From Bacteroidia bacterium (GTDB taxonomy: Bacteria > Bacteroidota > Bacteroidia > B-17B0 > Aurantibacillaceae), in the NCBI GenBank assembly GCA_025451115.1, contig JANWKZ010000090.1:1-43732 (forward strand): a stretch of DNA of 43,732 nucleotides. The letters run 5' to 3'. The notes beneath the pieces were generated by a model, which saw only the letters and a program-made list of their open reading frames with translations, made no database searches and was not told where the DNA came from. Numbering within the stretch: the first letter of the stretch is position 1; every line of letters starts with the position of its first letter. The position numbers and the translations under genes are program-made. Of the stretch, positions 10,785 through 37,632 are shown piece after piece.

Positions 10785-11011
10785 TTTTTGTTTTTTTAAG
10801 CAAGCAGTTGTTTTTGCTTCGGCTTGCCATAAACGAAAACAGTGCCCAAGTTGTTACTTCGCTGAATAACAGTTAGTTTAAAAAAATATGATGATACGAT
10901 TGCTTCCCGTTTTGAACAGTGTGTTTTAGGAATCGGGAAAACGTCTCTTTAAATAAGAAAAATATACAAGATGAAAACCCTTCTTGGGCGATACCAAAAA
11001 ACACAAAATAA

Positions 11012-11042
11012 AAAAGGCCGGTCTGATAAAGACCGGCCTTTT
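11012..11042 (-). terminator. Strong intrinsic terminator after acyl-CoA dehydrogenase
   Basis: AAAAGGCCGGTC and GACCGGCCTTTT form a perfect 12-bp stem with a 7-base loop. On the reverse strand the stem is followed by a U-rich tract, and it lies 20 bases beyond the stop of the reverse-strand acyl-CoA dehydrogenase. The rest of the gap up to 10785 shows nothing else I can support. Confidence 0.85.
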
Positions 11043-11061
11043 ACACTTTTATTCTTATTTC

Positions 11062-15397: not shown

Positions 15398-16180
15398 CTA
15401 CTTCATCTTCTTTATATAGTCTGCCCACGCTTCCAACAATTCTTTTTCGGTTGTTTTTAAAGCGCCCAGTACTTCTGTCTTTGTTTTATATTTCAGGAGT
15501 TCCTTCAGTTTTTCCCTTCCGTATTTTGAATCAATGTGCATCACAATTGAGCCCGATAAACCATATTTTAATTTTCCTTTCCAGAAGTCGTCGAGTTGCG
15601 AAGGGGCGGTTTTATTTTCTATAGCTTTCTTTATCTCGGCCAGGCGTTCCGTATCGCATTGACCGGAGGCGAAGGTGGCAAATCCCTCTACAAACCAATC
15701 CAATCCCTGCGTCTCGGCAAAATCAGGACTAGGGTTTTTCTGCGCATGATAGATGTGGAAAAGCTCGTGCGTGATCAGCTTCTTTGTTTTGTCCTTGTTC
15801 CCATAATCGTGCTCACAGGCTTCGGTTTTCCATTTAAGAGGAGAAAGAAGATCAAGCTTGCCGGCAATGCCACTGGCCACCATCCAACATTCCGATCTAA
15901 GATCGGGCATTTTCCAATCGTTCTGCCATTGGGTATCTAATGCCTTCCTGTCCGGGTGAACATATACATCGAACTCTTTACTGAAATTGTCCTTAGAGAA
16001 GAATTTCACAGAGCGGATCCCATCATCCATGTATTGTACATAGCGCTTTTTCTCAGATTCATCGTCGCCCTGGTAGTACAATTTATACCCCTTATGGATC
16101 TCTTGCATCCACTCCTCCGTAAGAGACATGGATCCGAGTAATGCCAATGGAACGAATAGTATTAGCGCTTTCTTCCACAT
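15398..16180 (-). CDS. Exported HExxH (gluzincin-like) metallopeptidase
   Basis: This 260-residue protein has an N-terminal hydrophobic signal or anchor (about 4-20). It carries a zinc-peptidase core: H138-E139-L-F-H142 (LITHELFHIYHA) and, 23 residues on, DWFVEGFATFASGQ. The Glu at about 165 is the expected third ligand, as in gluzincins such as the basic secretory and M1-like groups. It is short and has no other domain. It is the last gene of the PadR-PspC operon, one base after the serine hydrolase gene, so it probably works in the envelope with those partners. The substrate is unknown. Confidence 0.82.
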   Translation of the reverse strand: MWKKALILFVPLALLGSMSLTEEWMQEIHKGYKLYYQGDDESEKKRYVQYMDDGIRSVKFFSKDNFSKEFDVYVHPDRKALDTQWQNDWKMPDLRSECWMVASGIAGKLDLLSPLKWKTEACEHDYGNKDKTKKLITHELFHIYHAQKNPSPDFAETQGLDWFVEGFATFASGQCDTERLAEIKKAIENKTAPSQLDDFWKGKLKYGLSGSIVMHIDSKYGREKLKELLKYKTKTEVLGALKTTEKELLEAWADYIKKMK

Positions 16181-16181
16181 T

Positions 16182-17531
16182 TTATTTTAGCTTTTTAGCG
16201 GGCATGTGTTGGCCGCCCTGGTGAAGCGTAAGTGTGGTTATATTTCCTTTTTTGTCTTTCGTGAATTCCATCTGCGCATCAACGGCCTTTGAAAAATACA
16301 TATACTCAGATTCCGGGTATAATTCAAGACGTGGTTGATTTGTAGCCTGGGCGTATATTCTCCCTTCCTCGGTACTAATCGTCATTACAAAACCGGGCAT
16401 TAATTCATAATCGCCTTTTAATTTTTCATAGGCTTTTTTATCAATTGTGGCGATCTTTCGTTCAACCGGGGTCTCGTACTTCGTTCCGAACATGATTGCG
16501 CGCAGTGTCTTGTTAGCGTTAAAGAACTTCTGGCTATCAACGTTCTTCAAAACTACAATGCACATATCATCATCGGGAAAACGATTCATTACGGTTGCGA
16601 AACCCTGGATGCCGCCGGTATGGAAGATCCACTTGTGCCCGGCATAATTATCTATCATCCATCCGTAAGCATACTTATCGAGGAAAGGCGTTGTGATCTT
16701 TTCCATTGATGCTTTACTCACAAGCTTCTCCGTATACAAAGCGCGGTCCCATAGATACATATCTTCTACGGTAGAATATAAGGCGCCGGCACCGGAAGGA
16801 ATACTCATATCAATATACTGCGCGTTCACGAGTTTCTCTCCTTCTTCGCTATATCCCAGGGCCACATGCTGAAGCACTTCGCCGTTATCATAGAGCCCTG
16901 TATTTTTCATTCCCAGCGGATCGAAGATGTTCTCTTTCATGAACACTCCATATTTTTTTCCGGACGCTTTTTCAATGATATAACTAAGTAAAAGATACCC
17001 CGAGTTGCTGTATTGATGTTTAGATCCCGGGTTAAAATCCAGCGGTTTAGTCTTAAAATAGCTGATCTCTTTGTCCAGGGTCATCGGCAGTGTCATGATC
17101 GAATCGAAGACCGGCAGACTTGTAAAATCCTTTATTCCGGAAGTGTGCGTAACCAAATGATGGATCGTGATGCTATCTCCTTTTGGATAATCCGGGATAT
17201 ACTTACTGAGCTTATCATCTACGCTGAGCGTGCCTTTTTCCTGCAACATCATAATGGCCATCGCTGTGAACTGTTTAGAGACCGAGGCTAACTTGAATTT
17301 AGTGGTTGCTGTGTTAGGTACGTTGTCGCTGTAATTAGCCATTCCGTATCCCTTACTCAGTAACACTTTGCCTCCTTTGGCTACCAGCACAGAGCCGGTG
17401 AACATGTTTTTGTTGGCGTACGACTGCAAAAGTGAATCTGCCTTTGCAGCTTTTTGTTCGTCGGTTTGCGCACTTAGGGTGGTCCCGGTCACGCTGCCCA
17501 GCAGCGCGAGGGAAATAAATAGTTTTTTCAT
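16182..17531 (-). CDS. Beta-lactamase-family serine hydrolase, exported
   Basis: This 449-residue protein has a signal peptide (MKKLFISLALLGSVTGTTLSAQ). The class C / DD-peptidase fold (about 30-355) shows the catalytic tetrad S83-V-S-K86 (ASVSKQFTAM), the tyrosine motif QYSNSGYLLL, and HTGGIQG as the third motif. A C-terminal lipocalin-like beta domain (about 365-449) follows, as in many Bacteroidota esterase-like members. Likely activities are an esterase or a peptidase on D-amino-acid compounds rather than antibiotic resistance. It lies 11 bases after pspC and 1 base before the peptidase gene. Confidence 0.93.
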   Translation of the reverse strand: MKKLFISLALLGSVTGTTLSAQTDEQKAAKADSLLQSYANKNMFTGSVLVAKGGKVLLSKGYGMANYSDNVPNTATTKFKLASVSKQFTAMAIMMLQEKGTLSVDDKLSKYIPDYPKGDSITIHHLVTHTSGIKDFTSLPVFDSIMTLPMTLDKEISYFKTKPLDFNPGSKHQYSNSGYLLLSYIIEKASGKKYGVFMKENIFDPLGMKNTGLYDNGEVLQHVALGYSEEGEKLVNAQYIDMSIPSGAGALYSTVEDMYLWDRALYTEKLVSKASMEKITTPFLDKYAYGWMIDNYAGHKWIFHTGGIQGFATVMNRFPDDDMCIVVLKNVDSQKFFNANKTLRAIMFGTKYETPVERKIATIDKKAYEKLKGDYELMPGFVMTISTEEGRIYAQATNQPRLELYPESEYMYFSKAVDAQMEFTKDKKGNITTLTLHQGGQHMPAKKLK

Positions 17532-17542
17532 GATCTGGTTGT

Positions 17543-19318
17543 TTACTTTTCTCCTTTATCGCCCTTCTCGCCTTTTTCTTCTTTAGCATCTATTTTGATG
17601 CCGTCATGGTTGATCTTCACATGAGCGTCCTTCGACTTTACTTCGATCCCATTCTCGTCGATCTTCACTTTTGCATCGGGATCTTCGATGTGAACTTCTT
17701 CCATGTTAGGATGTATTATAACCGGGTGTTTGAACTCATTTTTAGGGCAGGTACGGCAAGTAAGGCCATTGTCGGTCATTACCCAGTATTTGTTCACCAT
17801 TTCCTGGTCGAAGATCTCGTTAGTGTTGTCAACATCGTAGAGCAGGTACTTCAGCGTATTATCAAGATAGATCACTTTATTGCGTGGCATTTTGATAAGT
17901 ACCTCAACTTCCTGCTGGCGGAATTTATCCGAACCGGGGAACGAGTAGTATTTATCCAGAACCAATACAGAATCTGTTTGCTGAAGTTTATAATTCACAT
18001 TCTTCGCGCGTTTGGCTGCTTCTGTTTTTTCGTTGCCGCGGGCCTTCTTTACGATGAATACATACAAGCTGTCGTTCTCAGAAGGTATGATCCTAACGTT
18101 TGGTTTTGCCCACCAGATAGAGGCCTTGCCTTGTTTATTGATCAGCCAGCGGTCGCCATCCATGCTAAAATTGATATCCGCATCTACTTTATTGTAATTT
18201 GAATTGGCTCTTACGTAAAGTGTGTCACTCGCTGGCATAGACACATCCGATTGTTGTTTTAATGAAGCCTCTTCCGAGAACTGGCTCGCAAATTTTGCTG
18301 CAATGGTAAATGAGAGGCACAAGCCGATCACCCAGGCAATGCCTGCCCCAATATTGATCCAGCGGTTGTGATATTTAATATTAAGCAACATTTTGGTGCC
18401 TTTGTAAATGATCATCACCAAAGGAACGCCCACCGCAAGTACGAGCGCAAACTTAGCCCAGAACACCGGGAAATCAGGGTCTGCAAATGAATTGATGAAC
18501 TCGCCGCTGGTTACATTGTCTATCTGACCGAAACCAAGTAATAACGAACTAAGTCCCACCATCATGATAATACCGAAGAAAACCAGGAATACTCCTATAA
18601 GACGACCCAGAATATTGAAAATGGTACCGAAGATCTGGCGAAGCAGGTCTACGAACTTCCCGGTGTTGTCGCGGTTAGAGAACTGGCTCTTTACGTTCGT
18701 TCCAAAATCACGGGCCTTGCTTTTTACGTTCTCTGCTTCGTCCTTGATAGTCTTACTAATGGTATTGATGTCTACGGGTTCGCCGCGCATCTCGAGTTTT
18801 TCGGCTGTGGTCTTCGCTTCGGGTATGATCACCCAAAGGATGATATAAAGTATAAGCCCGGTACCAAATCCAAAGAACATGATCACTAATCCGAGACGGA
18901 TCCAAAGCGGATCGATGTCGAAATAGTTTCCTATACCCGAGCACACACCGCCAAGTATCTTACTGTCTGGATCGCGGAACACGCGACGACGCTTGTTGCC
19001 GTAATACCCTTGGGCAGTATGGGTCTCTTCTTTTTTACTTTCCTGTGAAGAACTTGCTTCGGCAAAATCTTCGGGTTGACCCATCACCGAGATGGCGTCG
19101 TTGATATCGACCATCACCAACACCTGTTTACCGGCGTGTATCTTGGCTTTTAAAAGTTCGGCCAGGCGCGCTTCGATATCGGCTACGATCTCCTCGCAGC
19201 CCTCTTCGTTACGAAAATGGCTTTTGATCTTATTCAAATAACTTTTAAGCGACTCGTAGGCATCCTCTTCGATGTTGAAAACGATACCGCTTATGTTTAT
19301 GGATAATGTCTTGTTCAT
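17543..19318 (-). CDS. PspC-domain membrane protein
   Basis: This 591-residue inner-membrane protein has a cytoplasmic N-terminal part (1-110) of the kind seen before PspC in Bacteroidota. The PspC domain (about 113-172) reads DSKILGGVCSGIGNYF then DPLWIRLGLVIMFFGFGTGL. Three more hydrophobic regions follow at about 230-265, 290-315 and 325-345, and then a large beta-rich C-terminal domain ending in collagen-like EKGEKGDKGEK. PspC proteins respond to envelope stress in proteobacteria; in Bacteroidota the family is often paired with PadR, as here (19 bases downstream of padR). The C-terminal domain may bind or sense an envelope ligand, by inference. Confidence 0.92.
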   Translation of the reverse strand: MNKTLSINISGIVFNIEEDAYESLKSYLNKIKSHFRNEEGCEEIVADIEARLAELLKAKIHAGKQVLVMVDINDAISVMGQPEDFAEASSSQESKKEETHTAQGYYGNKRRRVFRDPDSKILGGVCSGIGNYFDIDPLWIRLGLVIMFFGFGTGLILYIILWVIIPEAKTTAEKLEMRGEPVDINTISKTIKDEAENVKSKARDFGTNVKSQFSNRDNTGKFVDLLRQIFGTIFNILGRLIGVFLVFFGIIMMVGLSSLLLGFGQIDNVTSGEFINSFADPDFPVFWAKFALVLAVGVPLVMIIYKGTKMLLNIKYHNRWINIGAGIAWVIGLCLSFTIAAKFASQFSEEASLKQQSDVSMPASDTLYVRANSNYNKVDADINFSMDGDRWLINKQGKASIWWAKPNVRIIPSENDSLYVFIVKKARGNEKTEAAKRAKNVNYKLQQTDSVLVLDKYYSFPGSDKFRQQEVEVLIKMPRNKVIYLDNTLKYLLYDVDNTNEIFDQEMVNKYWVMTDNGLTCRTCPKNEFKHPVIIHPNMEEVHIEDPDAKVKIDENGIEVKSKDAHVKINHDGIKIDAKEEKGEKGDKGEK

Positions 19319-19337: not shown

Positions 19338-19679
19338 TTATTTCTGTGTGGTTGATTGATTAATGGTTTTGTTTACCGCGTCTACCAGCTCATGCCAGGA
19401 TTGCTGAAGTTCTTTTAGGAATTTCTCTCCTTCTTCGGTGAGCCTGTAGTATTTACGTGGGGGACCTGAAGTAGATTCTTCCCAGCGATAGCTCAGGAGC
19501 CCGGTGTTCTTGAGGCGTGTAAGCAGCGGATATAAAGTTCCCTCCACCACAACCAGTTTTGTTTCTTTCAGCTTATCGATGATCTCGGTTGGATAGGCAT
19601 CCCCGTTGAGGAGGATCGAAAGGATGCAAAGCTCCAACACTCCCTTTCTCATCTGCGCTTTTGTGTTCTCTGTATTCAT
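19338..19679 (-). CDS. PadR-family transcriptional regulator
   Basis: This 113-residue winged-helix repressor starts with the PadR pattern MRKGVLELCILSILLNGDAYPTEIIDKL. The wing carries LYPLLTRLKNTGLLSYRWEESTSGPPRKYYRLTEEG, nearly a consensus for the family. A short C-terminal helix (FLKELQQSWHELVDAV) should mediate dimerisation. It precedes pspC by 19 bases. It probably represses its own operon; the candidate operator lies over the promoter upstream of the first gene. Confidence 0.95.
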   Translation of the reverse strand: MNTENTKAQMRKGVLELCILSILLNGDAYPTEIIDKLKETKLVVVEGTLYPLLTRLKNTGLLSYRWEESTSGPPRKYYRLTEEGEKFLKELQQSWHELVDAVNKTINQSTTQK

Positions 19680-19702
19680 GAGTATTTATTTTTTATCCAG
19701 GT

Positions 19703-19726
19703 TCCCGCCTCCGGAGGACGGCGGGA
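19703..19726. repeat. Intercistronic hairpin between the small exported gene and padR
   Basis: TCCCGCC and GGCGGGA form a 7-bp perfect stem around a GC-rich loop that can itself pair partly (TCCGGAGGA). No U tract follows on either strand, so it looks like an mRNA-processing or attenuation structure rather than a terminator. It lies in the 56-base gap of an otherwise tight operon. Confidence 0.5.
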
Positions 19727-19735
19727 CTGAAAATT

Positions 19736-20089
19736 TTAGTACACGTTAAAATTTATCTCCACGTTATATGCGCCGGCCTTCAATTCGGGCAAAGCGATCT
19801 TTTTGAACTGGCTCTCGAGGTTTTGTTTTAGGACCGCGTTAGGCGTATTTGCCACAACGGCCTGCACATTTCCTTTTGTGTCGAGCTCGAAAGCCACTTT
19901 TACCTTTTGTGCGAAGCCCGGGTTCTTTAATTCTTCGGGTAAAGAAACCGCGCGGGTGATCTTTTGACGGACTGTGCTTGCGGTAGTTTCACCTTTTGGG
20001 GTGCCGGCCGCCGCGGTTGCTGTTAAAAAGCCTAAGCTTAATAAGCCGGCCAGGAACAGGGTTTTTACTTTGTTGATGGTTGTTTTCAT
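19736..20089 (-). CDS. Small exported protein, first gene of PadR operon
   Basis: This 117-residue protein has a signal peptide (KVKTLFLAGLLSLGFLTATAAA). The mature part (about 30-117) contains KVKVAFELDTKGNVQAVVANTPNAVLKQNLESQFKKI and ends YNVEINFNVY. The pattern, with a basic strand, 'DTKGNV' and terminal strand, resembles the TonB C-terminal fold seen in small periplasmic proteins, but I cannot assign a family. It has its own TATCTTTG promoter and is followed by padR after a hairpin. It may be a periplasmic partner or readout of the PspC system, by inference from position. Confidence 0.75.
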   Translation of the reverse strand: MKTTINKVKTLFLAGLLSLGFLTATAAAGTPKGETTASTVRQKITRAVSLPEELKNPGFAQKVKVAFELDTKGNVQAVVANTPNAVLKQNLESQFKKIALPELKAGAYNVEINFNVY

Positions 20090-20174: not shown

Positions 20175-20182
20175 CAAAGATA
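20175..20182 (-). promoter_or_regulatory. TAnnTTTG promoter element of the PadR operon
   Basis: On the reverse strand this reads TATCTTTG, an exact consensus match. The predicted leader before the ATG at 20089 is about 80 bases. The 29-bp palindrome lies 9 bases upstream of the element. Confidence 0.6.
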
Positions 20183-20191
20183 AGGGCTTTA

Positions 20192-20220
20192 TTTAGTATT
20201 ATGCAAGACATAGTACTAAA
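20192..20220. promoter_or_regulatory. 29-bp palindrome, candidate PadR operator
   Basis: TTTAGTATTATG and CATAGTACTAAA are 12-base arms with one mismatch around a CAAGA spacer. The site covers the expected -33 region of the reverse-strand promoter at 20175-20182. PadR proteins bind palindromes over their own promoters, so this is the likely autorepression site. The forward TerC promoter lies about 60 bases away. Confidence 0.6.
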
Positions 20221-20281
20221 ATAGTTTATATCATATTGATAATCAATTAGAAAAATTTTATCTTTGGCTTCATTAAAATCG

Positions 20282-20308: not shown

Positions 20309-21064
20309 ATGGACTATTCCGACCTCATTTCCCACTTATTTTCAGTAGAAGGTCTTATTAGCTTGCTTACGCTCTCCCTCTTAGAGATCGTATTGGGCAT
20401 CGACAATATCATTTTCATTGCTATTGTTGCAGATAAGCTACCTAATAACCAAAAGGGACAGGCGCGTACTACGGGTCTTATCCTGGCTGTTTTTATCCGT
20501 GTGGCCCTGCTTTTTACATTAAGCTATCTATCTAACAATAACGACGCACTTTTTCATATTGCAGATAAGCCGATATCTCTGCGTGATATTATCTTTTTTG
20601 CCGGTGGTATATTCCTTTTATACAAGACATGGGGAGAGATCATGGAAAAGATAAGAGGCGAAGGTGGAGATGGTCACTCACCAAAAGTGAAGAAGGTAAG
20701 CGTAGGCAGTATCATCACGCAGATCGTTCTGATCGATATCGTTTTTTCTTTCGACTCTATCCTTACAGCCGTAGTTGTTTCCAAGAACATTCTTATTATG
20801 GGTAGCGCCGTGATCATTGCCATGCTTATTATGGTGATCTTCTCCGGCGCCGTGGCCGAATTCATTAACCGGAATCCGCGTATCAAAATGCTGGCGCTTG
20901 CCTTCCTTTTAGTAATAAGCTTACTCCTGCTTTTCGAATCGATCCACGTATTTACGCACATCGAAATACCAAAAAGCTATATTTACTGCGCGCTGGGCTT
21001 CTCGCTGTTTGTAGAGATCCTGAACATGTGGGAAAAGAAACGGGGCGCCCGCAAAAAGGAATAA
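20309..21064 (+). CDS. TerC-family integral membrane protein
   Basis: This 251-residue polytopic membrane protein of the TerC/Alx family has about seven to eight hydrophobic segments. Signatures are LEIVLGIDNIIFIAIVADKLP near residue 25, with the acidic Glu and Asp in the membrane, and IVLIDIVFSFDSILTAV near residue 148 (second acidic repeat). The family has been linked to metal-ion export, notably manganese, and to tellurite resistance; the ion here is not known. It is monocistronic. Its stop is 2 bases from that of convergent rsmG with no clear terminator. Confidence 0.93.
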   Translation: MDYSDLISHLFSVEGLISLLTLSLLEIVLGIDNIIFIAIVADKLPNNQKGQARTTGLILAVFIRVALLFTLSYLSNNNDALFHIADKPISLRDIIFFAGGIFLLYKTWGEIMEKIRGEGGDGHSPKVKKVSVGSIITQIVLIDIVFSFDSILTAVVVSKNILIMGSAVIIAMLIMVIFSGAVAEFINRNPRIKMLALAFLLVISLLLLFESIHVFTHIEIPKSYIYCALGFSLFVEILNMWEKKRGARKKE

Positions 21065-26314: not shown

Positions 26315-26379
26315 GTTGCTTGCTTTTGTAGTATAACGCTTATCGGTAACAGAAAGTTACAGGGGCATCAAAATAATTT

Positions 26380-26406
26380 AAAAAGGCGCCCTAGGGGCGC
26401 CTTTTC
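26380..26406 (-). terminator. Intrinsic terminator of the T9SS protein gene
   Basis: AAAAGGCGCCC and GGGCGCCTTTT form a perfect 11-bp stem around a TAG triloop. It is followed on the reverse strand by a U-rich tract, 17 bases past the stop of the T9SS gene, and isolates that gene from the AraC gene downstream. Confidence 0.85.
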
Positions 26407-26423
26407 ATGGGTTTGCTTTACTC

Positions 26424-31001: not shown

Positions 31002-34000
31002 CTAGTTCTTAACGATACGTTTGATAGCTATGCTGTTATTACTGGTGACCTGCACCATATAGCTTCCACTTACAAAAGAACTCATGTCGATCGTATGAGA
31101 AGTAACCCCTTCTATTGTTGCGCTGTATAATTCCTGGCCCAGCATAGAAACAACTTTGATAGTGGTTTTTCCGCTTCCAGTGTTGAGACTGATGTTCAGA
31201 TCACCGGTGGTAGGATTCGGATACATCGCGAACATATTGTCGTTGTTGTTCTTGATGCCGATCGTGCGGTTGTTGCTGATATTTGATTTCGATTTAATGA
31301 TCGCTCCCTGGATACCGTTAGATTGTCTTGCAGTTGATGTACAAGAAATATTCCAGGCAGTCTCTACACGCCAGTCGGCGGTAGCCTGGAAGGTAGCGTA
31401 GTTAGGGTCGTTCAGCACGTTCTGCGTTCCCGCTGTGGTTCCAACCTGCACCCAGTTGCCGTTAGCGAAGTCGTCGCGCCACAAGATGTAGTTGTTCACG
31501 GGGTTTGGCATGTTCTGGATCGTGTAAGTGTTCCATGTAAATGTTCCGCCGCTGTGGCTAATGAAGATCGTATTGTGGAATCCGCTCTTCGGACCTTCAT
31601 TTCCGCAAGTATCAACTGCGGCGATCTTGTAGCGCTTGGTTGTTACATTTGGATCTGCCATGAGTGTATCATAATCATGATACTCGCTCAGTGAGTCGTA
31701 AGACACGGCTGCAATCAGCGTGTAATTATTAGAAATATCTTCGCGGTAAATATTGAAATACGCAATCTCGTTGGTGAGGCCTGCTTTTTCCCAAACGAGG
31801 ATATTGTGTGTTGAGAAAGTATCCACAGTTACCATACACAGGTTAACAGCGGGAGGTGCCTTTAAGGTGATAGACACGGTATCTTTATTAGAACAGTTGT
31901 TGGCGTCTGTACCCGTAACCTGGTAAGCCATAGTTGTGGTTGGGATAAAGGGCACGCCATTAGTAACTCCATTGTTCCACGAATAAGAGGTTGCTCCGCT
32001 TCCGTTCAGACTTACTGAAGTTCCGGGACAGATCAATTGATCGGCCCCACCATTCACCACCGGTAAAGCAAGTACGTTCACATAAATAGAATCCGGGGCG
32101 CTTGTTCCGCAATAGTTCATTTGCTGCAGCATTACGTACCCGGAAGTGCCGGCAACATCTACAGAAACGCTATTAGGTTGAGCGGTAGTGTTTACCGTCA
32201 ATCCCGATGTGGATGTCCAGTTATATCCGGTGATCGTAGTATTAGATGTAACGCTGTAAAGATTTCCTTGTGTTTGCGCACAAACACTGGTTGATCCACT
32301 GATCATGATCGGGGCCGGCCCATAGCATAATTTTTGCATTTCTATATCAGAGCCCGTTTCATCCGCAAAATACCCGGTAACATATACATCTCCGTTACCA
32401 TCTATGCGAATGTCTCTTGTTCCTCCGTACGAATTATCACCATAATTGGTCCAGATATTGGTTCGTACATTATTCAATTCATTTCCTAAAGTATCTAACT
32501 CAATCGCTCCTATCTCGCCATAATAATCCAAAGCTACGAGGATGGTAGAACGACTGGTCTTTGCTAATTTCATCGGATGCTCGCAGCAACCATACACGAA
32601 ATCACGATGCCAAAGTTCTACTCCACTGTTATCATAACAAAAAACCCGGTTAGAATATGCAGAACTGGAATCGAAGAAACAGGTAATGAACGTACGCCCA
32701 CCAGGCAGTGTCATCACGTCTGGGCCAACTTCCGTTACGCTATCCGGAAAAGAAGACCACAATAGGTTTCCATTTGAATCATACTTTGCTACCATAGCAA
32801 TTGCTGAATCTCCGTGACCTACAATAGCAACGTCCTGGTTAGAATCAACATTCACAGCAATCGCGGTATCGTTTCCGTTATTCGGGCTGTTAAATGTACG
32901 CGACCATTGCAGGTTTCCGTTTGCATCATATTTTGCAAGCAGCATATCGCTCTCGCCGTTTGGTTTGGTCGTATAACCCGCCGCGTATAATGTGTTGCCA
33001 TTCTTTGATCCCACATCCAGATATCCGTCTTTTTGATTGCCCGAGCCACTCAGTTTTTTGCTCCATAAAAGCGTCCCGGAAGAATTAAATTTAACAAGCA
33101 CGGCGTCCTGCCCGGTGCCGTTGTTATACTGATAACCTGCAGCGTACCCATTATTGAAATTGTCGGTAAACACATCTTTTACTTCGTCCTTACCGCCCAC
33201 ATTTGTTCCTTGTAATACAAGGTCCCATAGTTTTAACCCGTTTCCGTCAACCTTGATGATCCACATATCCGGGTTATTGCTGCTTGTTTCAGTATATCCG
33301 CCCGCATAATAATGCCCTGAGGAGTTTATGTCAACAACATTAAGATAATCATTAAATCCTCCCACGCCGGGGAATACAGATTGCCATTGTTCGTTACCGG
33401 TAGCGTCATACTTCACCATAAAACCATCCTGTTGCGTCAAAGTACTTTTGGTTCCACCTGCAACAGCCGGTAAATTAGAAGCGTCGGTTACCATAGAAGA
33501 AGCGTAGTCGCTGCCGTTAATAACACCGTTATAAATATTGCTGTAAATAAACGCTCCCAGCGTGTCGAGTTTGGCATAGTAATAATCATTTCCGGTTACC
33601 GTTTTAAAAATGTTTCCGGTAAGGATCATATCCTGTGTGGTAGGATCTACATCTATGGCAGTTGAATAATCGTTATCGGTTACATCGTGATCGTACTGAT
33701 AGATCTGTGAAATGCTGGTCAAAGCAAGGTCAGTCTTATAAAGCACCATCATGTTATCATTATTGAAACTGGTGCGGGTACCCGAAATATAAAGTTGGTT
33801 GGTTGTAGGATGTATTTTAATGTGCGGCTGTAGATAGGATACATAGTTATACTGGTAGGTAGTTCCGTTCGAAGTTAGAAAAGTCCCCCCTGATGTATAT
33901 TTTCGCACAGAGTATTTTGTCATTGGCGTGTGGCTGTCATAAAGAACGTAAACGTTTCCGGAGGCGTCCTGCTCTAAACCACACCCTTTGTCATCCGAGT

Positions 34001-37581: not shown

Positions 37582-37585
37582 AACA

Positions 37586-37612
37586 AAAAAGCAGCCCCGG
37601 GGGCTGCTTTTT
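37586..37612. terminator. Bidirectional intrinsic terminator
   Basis: AAAAAGCAGCCCC and GGGGCTGCTTTTT form a perfect 13-bp stem with a minimal loop. It lies between the convergent LytTR gene and the large T9SS gene and has U tracts in both directions. Confidence 0.88.
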
Positions 37613-37632
37613 CTTAGGTAAAATAATTCCTT

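What the first reader, a model, noticed from the sequence alone, without database searches (positions are those of the whole stretch)
20175..20220. 29-bp palindrome over the promoter of the PadR-PspC operon
Arms TTTAGTATTATG and CATAGTACTAAA differ from perfect symmetry at one position and begin 9 bases upstream of an exact TATCTTTG element. PadR is the second gene of the operon. The site position fits direct repression by blocking the -33 contact.
Basis: partly seen in the sequence, partly recalled or inferred. Interest (0 to 1): 0.55.

Follow-up and report, generated by a model that had tools for sequence, protein, structure and literature searches.

The report
Conserved PadR operator in Bacteroidota
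A short mirrored DNA sequence sits on the promoter of a membrane-stress gene cluster and is very probably the docking site of that cluster's own repressor; the same site recurs, at nearly the same distance from the promoter, across a whole group of bacteria, including one whose repressor was known but whose docking site had not been found.

Summary
Confirmed and strengthened. The 29-bp palindrome is exactly at 20192-20220; its centre lies on the -33 TTG, and TATCTTTG starts 24 bp from the centre. Alone it is only modestly unlikely (72 of 4000 shuffles of the intergenic region have one as good). Conservation decides. The core GTACTATGTnTTGCATAGTAC lies upstream of padR-pspC in 61 of 67 loci of the window's family and 51 of 54 further GTDB loci; TAnnTTTG starts at exactly +24 in 59 of 61 and 42 of 51. 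A composite operator-promoter pattern hits 177 of 395 Bacteroidia genomes, reversed control 2, and tracks padR (172 of 177). In Elizabethkingia (identity inferred), the orthologous PadR, Vsr1, is a reported autorepressor whose binding site its authors could not find (PMC10812688); the same site lies there in 4 of 4 genomes. PspC carries an N-terminal HAAS domain, so this is the cis-element of a HAAS-PadR-PspC circuit. In some lineages the site also precedes unlinked small secreted-protein genes. Direct PadR binding and HAAS-driven release are inferred.

The parts
20192..20220 (.). 29-bp palindromic operator, predicted PadR site; reads TTTAGTACTATGTCTTGCATAATACTAAA on the minus strand
   Evidence: conserved core and promoter distance
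20204..20206 (-). TTG at the centre of the operator, predicted -33 contact
   Evidence: position relative to the -7 box; T15 53 of 54, T16 54 of 54, G17 48 of 54; the -33 role itself is recalled knowledge of Bacteroidota promoters
20175..20182 (-). TATCTTTG, -7 element (TAnnTTTG) of the secreted protein-padR-pspC operon
   Evidence: composite match 20175-20215
19736..20089 (-). 117-aa protein, probably secreted (by eye), weak AgmX/PglI C-terminal-like match; first gene
19338..19679 (-). PadR-family regulator, 113 aa
   Evidence: closest solved structure 5h20, E 2.6e-41
17543..19318 (-). 591-aa membrane protein: HAAS (27-88), PspC, LiaI/LiaF-TM, Toast-rack
20309..21064 (+). TerC-family membrane protein, divergent gene
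   Evidence: its own TATCTTTG at 20259-20266 read

Best explanation
The palindrome is the operator of the PadR protein encoded in the same operon. A PadR dimer bound there covers the -33 element and keeps sigma-A RNA polymerase off the promoter of the secreted protein-padR-pspC operon, so PadR represses its own operon. The operator-promoter geometry is a unit conserved across Bacteroidia. Most likely the HAAS domain at the cytoplasmic N-terminus of PspC senses or relays membrane stress and loosens PadR from DNA, derepressing the operon. Shown: sequence, geometry, conservation, linkage to padR, HAAS domain. Reported for an ortholog: loss of PadR derepresses the operon. Inferred: direct binding, steric blocking of -33, HAAS-mediated release.
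For: Core upstream of padR in 61 of 67 family loci and 51 of 54 other loci, TAnnTTTG at exactly 24 in 59 of 61 and 42 of 51; three shuffled palindromes reach the same threshold in 0, 1 and 3 of 54 and 3, 3 and 10 of 67. Composite pattern in 177 of 395 genomes against 2 for the reversed control; 172 of the 177 carry a padR ortholog. The site follows padR when the first gene differs or is missing. Elizabethkingia: site in 4 of 4 genomes where loss of the ortholog raised vsr1 and ORF551 224- and 100-fold (PMC10812688). Precedent of the same domain content: Listeria LltR, PadR-DUF1700-DUF4097 operon, about 150-fold derepressed in an lltR mutant (PMC6624303, passages). HAAS in 20 of 25 PspC N-termini.
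Against: No binding data. 103 of 275 padR genomes lack a pattern match; only 20 of those were read (20 of 20 had a variant site, two of them with TAnnTTTG at 28). In one search, 6 of 67 family and 3 of 54 other loci had no core. The spacing is not the ATGT-N8-10-ACAT described for PadR operators. In wild-type E. anophelis vancomycin itself raised vsr1 only about 2-fold and ORF551 not at all, so the inducing signal is unknown. The window's own HAAS match is below Pfam's cut-off (22.8 of 27 bits), and a fold search of that domain found nothing.
Confidence: 0.88

Rival explanations
1. PadR binds the site but its main or additional role is on the divergent terC promoter (dual regulation or activation), the site being an upstream element of terC.
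For: The site lies between the two promoters; in 49 terC-linked family sites the terC-side TAnnTTTG clusters at 76-78 bp (20 entries) and 85-87 bp (21 entries) from the operator centre, about one helical turn apart.
Against: The site stays with padR where terC is not the neighbour, keeps a nearly fixed distance only to the padR-side promoter, and in the window the terC box is at about 53 bp; only derepression on loss is reported, for an ortholog (PMC10812688).
Confidence: 0.07
2. The palindrome is bound by another, unlinked transcription factor that controls the padR-pspC operon.
For: No binding assay exists; in some genomes sites precede genes other than padR.
Against: 172 of 177 genomes with the composite pattern have this padR ortholog, most genomes have one site, and it lies at the padR operon whatever the first gene is; loss of the ortholog alone derepresses the operon (PMC10812688).
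Confidence: 0.04
3. Chance repeat, terminator or RNA hairpin.
For: By itself the repeat appears in 72 of 4000 shuffles.
Against: It lies upstream of both predicted start sites, is AT-rich, no terminator-like site was found there, and the sequence itself, not only its symmetry, is conserved at a nearly fixed promoter distance.
Confidence: 0.01

Closest known systems
Elizabethkingia anophelis vsr1-ORF551 (PMC10812688; abstract, passages and section 2.4 read)
   Same: Orthologous PadR (69% identical over 104 aa) followed by a PspC-domain membrane protein; reported negative autoregulation; same operator with TAnnTTTG at 24 found here
   Different: No secreted first gene before padR in the stretch read; the paper reports no PadR site; species identity of the loci is inferred from a primer match
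HAAS-PadR-like wHTH dyad (Ravi et al. 2024, PMC11237479; passages read)
   Different: No operator in the passages read; its mechanism is a proposal
Listeria LltR operon (PMC6624303; passages read)
   Same: PadR autorepressor in an operon with DUF1700 (HAAS) and DUF4097 (Toastrack) proteins
   Different: HAAS and Toastrack are on separate proteins; Firmicute promoter; no operator sequence in the passages read
Operators of LmrR and bcPadR1 (PMC3506622) and LftR (PMC6457526); passages read
   Same: Palindromic sites in promoters bound by small PadR dimers; bcPadR1 and LftR bind their own promoter regions
   Different: Canonical ATGT/ACAT separated by 8-10 nt; here ATGT-N3-(G/A)CAT inside a longer GTACTATG..CATAGTAC palindrome

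Membership tests
PadR family, small (PadR-2) subfamily | PadR winged-helix domain over the cut-off, protein of about 100-115 aa | tested here: met
   PF03551 69.9 bits against a cut-off of 27, 113 aa
PadR family, small (PadR-2) subfamily | EGT(L/I)YPxLxRLE and G(P/R)RKYYx(L/I)TxxG motifs (PMC3506622) | tested here: met
   EGTLYPLLTRLK (last residue K, not E) and GPPRKYYRLTEEG in the protein; the YGYE motif is not met (AYPTEI)
Canonical PadR operator | ATGT/ACAT inverted motif separated by 8-10 nt | tested here: not met
   54-site matrix shows ATGT-N3-(G/A)CAT
HAAS-PadR dyad | HAAS domain encoded next to a stand-alone PadR | tested here: met
   PF22564 in 20 of 25 PspC N-termini at E<=0.01, best 1.2e-8; the window's own 1.2e-4, below Pfam's cut-off
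HAAS-PadR dyad | conserved GxP motif in the third helix | tested here: met
   GQP at 80-82 of the window protein; G80 invariant in 25, P not invariant
HAAS-PadR dyad | HAAS relays a membrane signal to PadR | not testable with these tools
   proposal of PMC11237479
Bacteroidota sigma-A promoter | TAnnTTTG -7 box | tested here: met
   TATCTTTG at 20175-20182; at +24 in 59 of 61 family sites
PadR autorepressor with its operator | sequence-specific binding and derepression on loss | not testable with these tools
   only derepression on loss is reported, for an ortholog (PMC10812688)

The most novel reading that the evidence does not exclude
The site is the DNA half of a class-wide Bacteroidota envelope-stress circuit without phosphorelay: a membrane PspC sensor, through its HAAS domain, directly pulls PadR off one operator class that controls its own operon and, in several lineages, unlinked genes for small secreted proteins. 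The window's 117-aa secreted first gene would be such a target fused into the padR operon.
Probability: 0.45. Interest if true: 0.75.

Novelty: new variant of a known kind. Interest (0 to 1): 0.6.

Why it matters
It gives a DNA target to the proposed HAAS-PadR stress switch and to Elizabethkingia Vsr1, whose authors report finding no PadR site. A class-wide operator with a nearly invariant promoter distance makes the regulon searchable in hundreds of genomes and the mechanism testable with one gel shift and one reporter.

Tried and rejected
Chance repeat, terminator and RNA hairpin: rejected by conservation of sequence and promoter distance.

A second operator at window 33201-33229 (10.9 bits): inside a 1303-aa ORF, rejected as chance.

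Structural support for HAAS: AlphaFold model of the PspC N-terminus (pLDDT 78.5) gave no PDB hit at E<=0.001; uninformative.

A second operator in the promoter region: in 8 family loci, all of genus g10, a half-site lies at a fixed place about 51 bp (centre to centre) downstream of the first operator; not in the window.

Laying the whole genome in the Python box to scan it with the matrix: not available; only pattern searches of it were made.

Rows dropped: six of the 60 fetched class regions (L262, L264, L295, L296, L303 as doubtful, L304 without a composite hit) before building the matrix; loci with under 150 nt upstream. In one search the six family loci with at least 150 nt upstream and no clear site are L018, L032, L052, L060, L066, L068; for the genomes of three of them (G037, G038, G026) a site appears elsewhere, on another contig or just outside the stretch I read.

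Full report
Observation. As a bare repeat it is weakly significant (72 of 4000 shuffles).

Anatomy. Leftward from the promoter lie a 117-aa probably secreted protein, PadR (PF03551, 1.9e-19), and a 591-aa protein with PspC, LiaI/LiaF-TM and Toast-rack domains. TerC is divergent. The palindrome centre is at 20206, where TTG (20204-20206, minus strand) would be the -33 element (recalled Bacteroidota promoter layout); the -7 box begins 24 bp away. In Flavobacterium psychrophilum the -7 box is at -12 to -5 (PMC9723704, passages), which puts the centre near -36.

Conservation in the window's family. PspC was found in 79 of 87 genomes. I read the upstream regions I could fetch; of 67 with at least 150 nt upstream of padR, 61 have the core (at least 12 of 16) and 59 of those have TAnnTTTG at exactly +24. 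In six other genomes of the window's own genus the PspC gene was found without the secreted gene or terC as neighbours in the stretch read; five of these stretches hold padR, and there the site stands directly before padR, 69-139 nt from its start, in 5 of 5. The site with at most 3 mismatches occurs in 63 of 87 genomes, once in nearly all of them, and in none of the 8 without a pspC match; low completeness of some of these genomes weakens the last point.

Conservation in Bacteroidia. Among 80 named GTDB loci found by PadR sequence alone (Flavobacterium, Tenacibaculum, Lutibacter, Polaribacter, Marinilabiliaceae and many MAGs), the 54 loci L161-L214, mostly outside the family, gave 51 with the core, 42 with TAnnTTTG at 24 and 4 at 23; three shuffled palindromes reach the threshold in 0, 1 and 3 of 54. 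A composite pattern with operator, 14 free bases and TAnnTTTG hit 177 of 395 Bacteroidia genomes; the reversed control hit 2. Cross-tabulated with padR orthologs at E<=1e-25 in the same 395 genomes: both 172, padR only 103, pattern only 5, neither 115 (Fisher 2.6e-31, without correction for relatedness). The 103 are not true absences as far as checked: 20 read, 20 with a core of at least 12 of 16 upstream of padR; TAnnTTTG at 24 in 10, 23 in 3, 22 in 5, 28 in 2. So the pattern threshold, not absence, explains those 20. Of the five pattern-only genomes, G142 has a broken padR frame right downstream, G459 has sites at secreted-protein genes, G175 has small membrane-protein genes like those that precede padR elsewhere, and G160 and G348 may be chance.

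Independent ranking. A matrix from 54 sites of other families places the window site first by 26 bits over the next non-overlapping site. The 54 sites were themselves found with a pattern, so only the outer positions (for example A4 46 of 54, G5 45 of 54) and the padR adjacency are independent of it.

What lies downstream. Of 59 fetched class regions with the composite (multi-site genomes over-represented on purpose), 39 have a padR ortholog in the stretch read, 15 start with a small gene whose product looks secreted (81-226 aa), and 5 show neither and may be chance (counted by hand). In f23, 5 of 6 sampled genomes have two sites, one at padR and one at a secreted-protein gene; in f68, 3 of 4 sampled genomes have two sites, all at such genes. 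Signal peptides were judged by eye. This suggests that the window's first gene is one case of a wider target theme.

Experimental anchor. In Elizabethkingia anophelis, vancomycin-selected mutants with a broken PadR gene (vsr1) show vsr1 and ORF551 raised 224- and 100-fold (R26VS1) and 272- and 80-fold (R26VS2); ORF551 has a phage-shock-protein domain, and the authors state that no PadR site was found upstream (PMC10812688: abstract, passages, section 2.4). I located the locus by the published forward primer in 4 of 320 genomes of one family, all of one genus; the protein is 112 aa with RKYY at 75-78 and overlaps the next ORF by 8 bp (the paper says 7), and the second primer matches with one mismatch. 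The operator starts 120 nt before the padR start codon with TAnnTTTG at exactly 24 in 4 of 4. Seven loci of genus g31 of the same family (L346-L352) have it too. The species name is an inference.

Mechanism. PspC begins with a HAAS domain: PF22564 in 20 of 25 members, best 1.2e-8, the window protein 1.2e-4, below the cut-off. Ravi et al. 2024 propose that HAAS relays membrane signals to a partner PadR, with release or reconfiguration (PMC11237479, passages), and Listeria LltR is an autorepressor in an operon of the same domain content (PMC6624303, passages). I therefore propose autorepression at -33 with HAAS-mediated relief. Binding, blocking and relief are not shown here. Against a simple vancomycin response: in wild-type E. 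anophelis vancomycin raised vsr1 only about 2-fold and ORF551 not at all (Table 3).

Novelty. Paper searches (open-licence PMC only) turned up no listing that describes this operator; of the papers listed I read passages of eight. A later review mentions vsr1 without a site in its one passage (PMC13111459). PadR autorepression is known; the operator, its nearly fixed -33 geometry, its spread and the wider targets appear new, hence a new variant of a known kind.

Noticed in passing
L016, L020, L023, L028, L031, L036, L042, L056 (genus g10), about 51 bp downstream of the first operator centre: A second half-site (GCATAGTAC-like) at a fixed place about five helical turns from the first operator in 8 family loci; absent in the window.
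   Followed up: partly
window 20206-20266 and family loci: The terC-side TAnnTTTG clusters at 76-78 and 85-87 bp from the operator centre in 49 terC-linked family sites, about one helical turn apart; in the window it is about 53 bp.
   Followed up: partly
window 19338-20089 against L003-L007: The window PadR is 90% identical to that of another genus (L009) but only 67-75% to its own genus, whose loci lack the secreted gene and terC as neighbours, while PspC is closest within the genus.
   Followed up: no
window 15398-17531 (-): A beta-lactamase-family serine hydrolase gene and a gene with a weak peptidase-MA match follow pspC by 12 and 2 bp and may belong to the same operon.
   Followed up: no
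window 19704-19725 and 19735-19746: A GC-rich inverted repeat between the secreted gene and padR (CCCGCC..GGCGGG), and a lone half-site-like TTTTAGTACACG at the end of the secreted gene; seen by eye.
   Followed up: no
L251, L254 (family f23): The second operator there precedes a small secreted-protein gene followed by what looks like an ABC transporter ATP-binding gene and a membrane protein (named by eye).
   Followed up: no
window 11011-11043, 26379-26407, 37585-37613: Long GC-rich inverted repeats that look like terminators.
   Followed up: no
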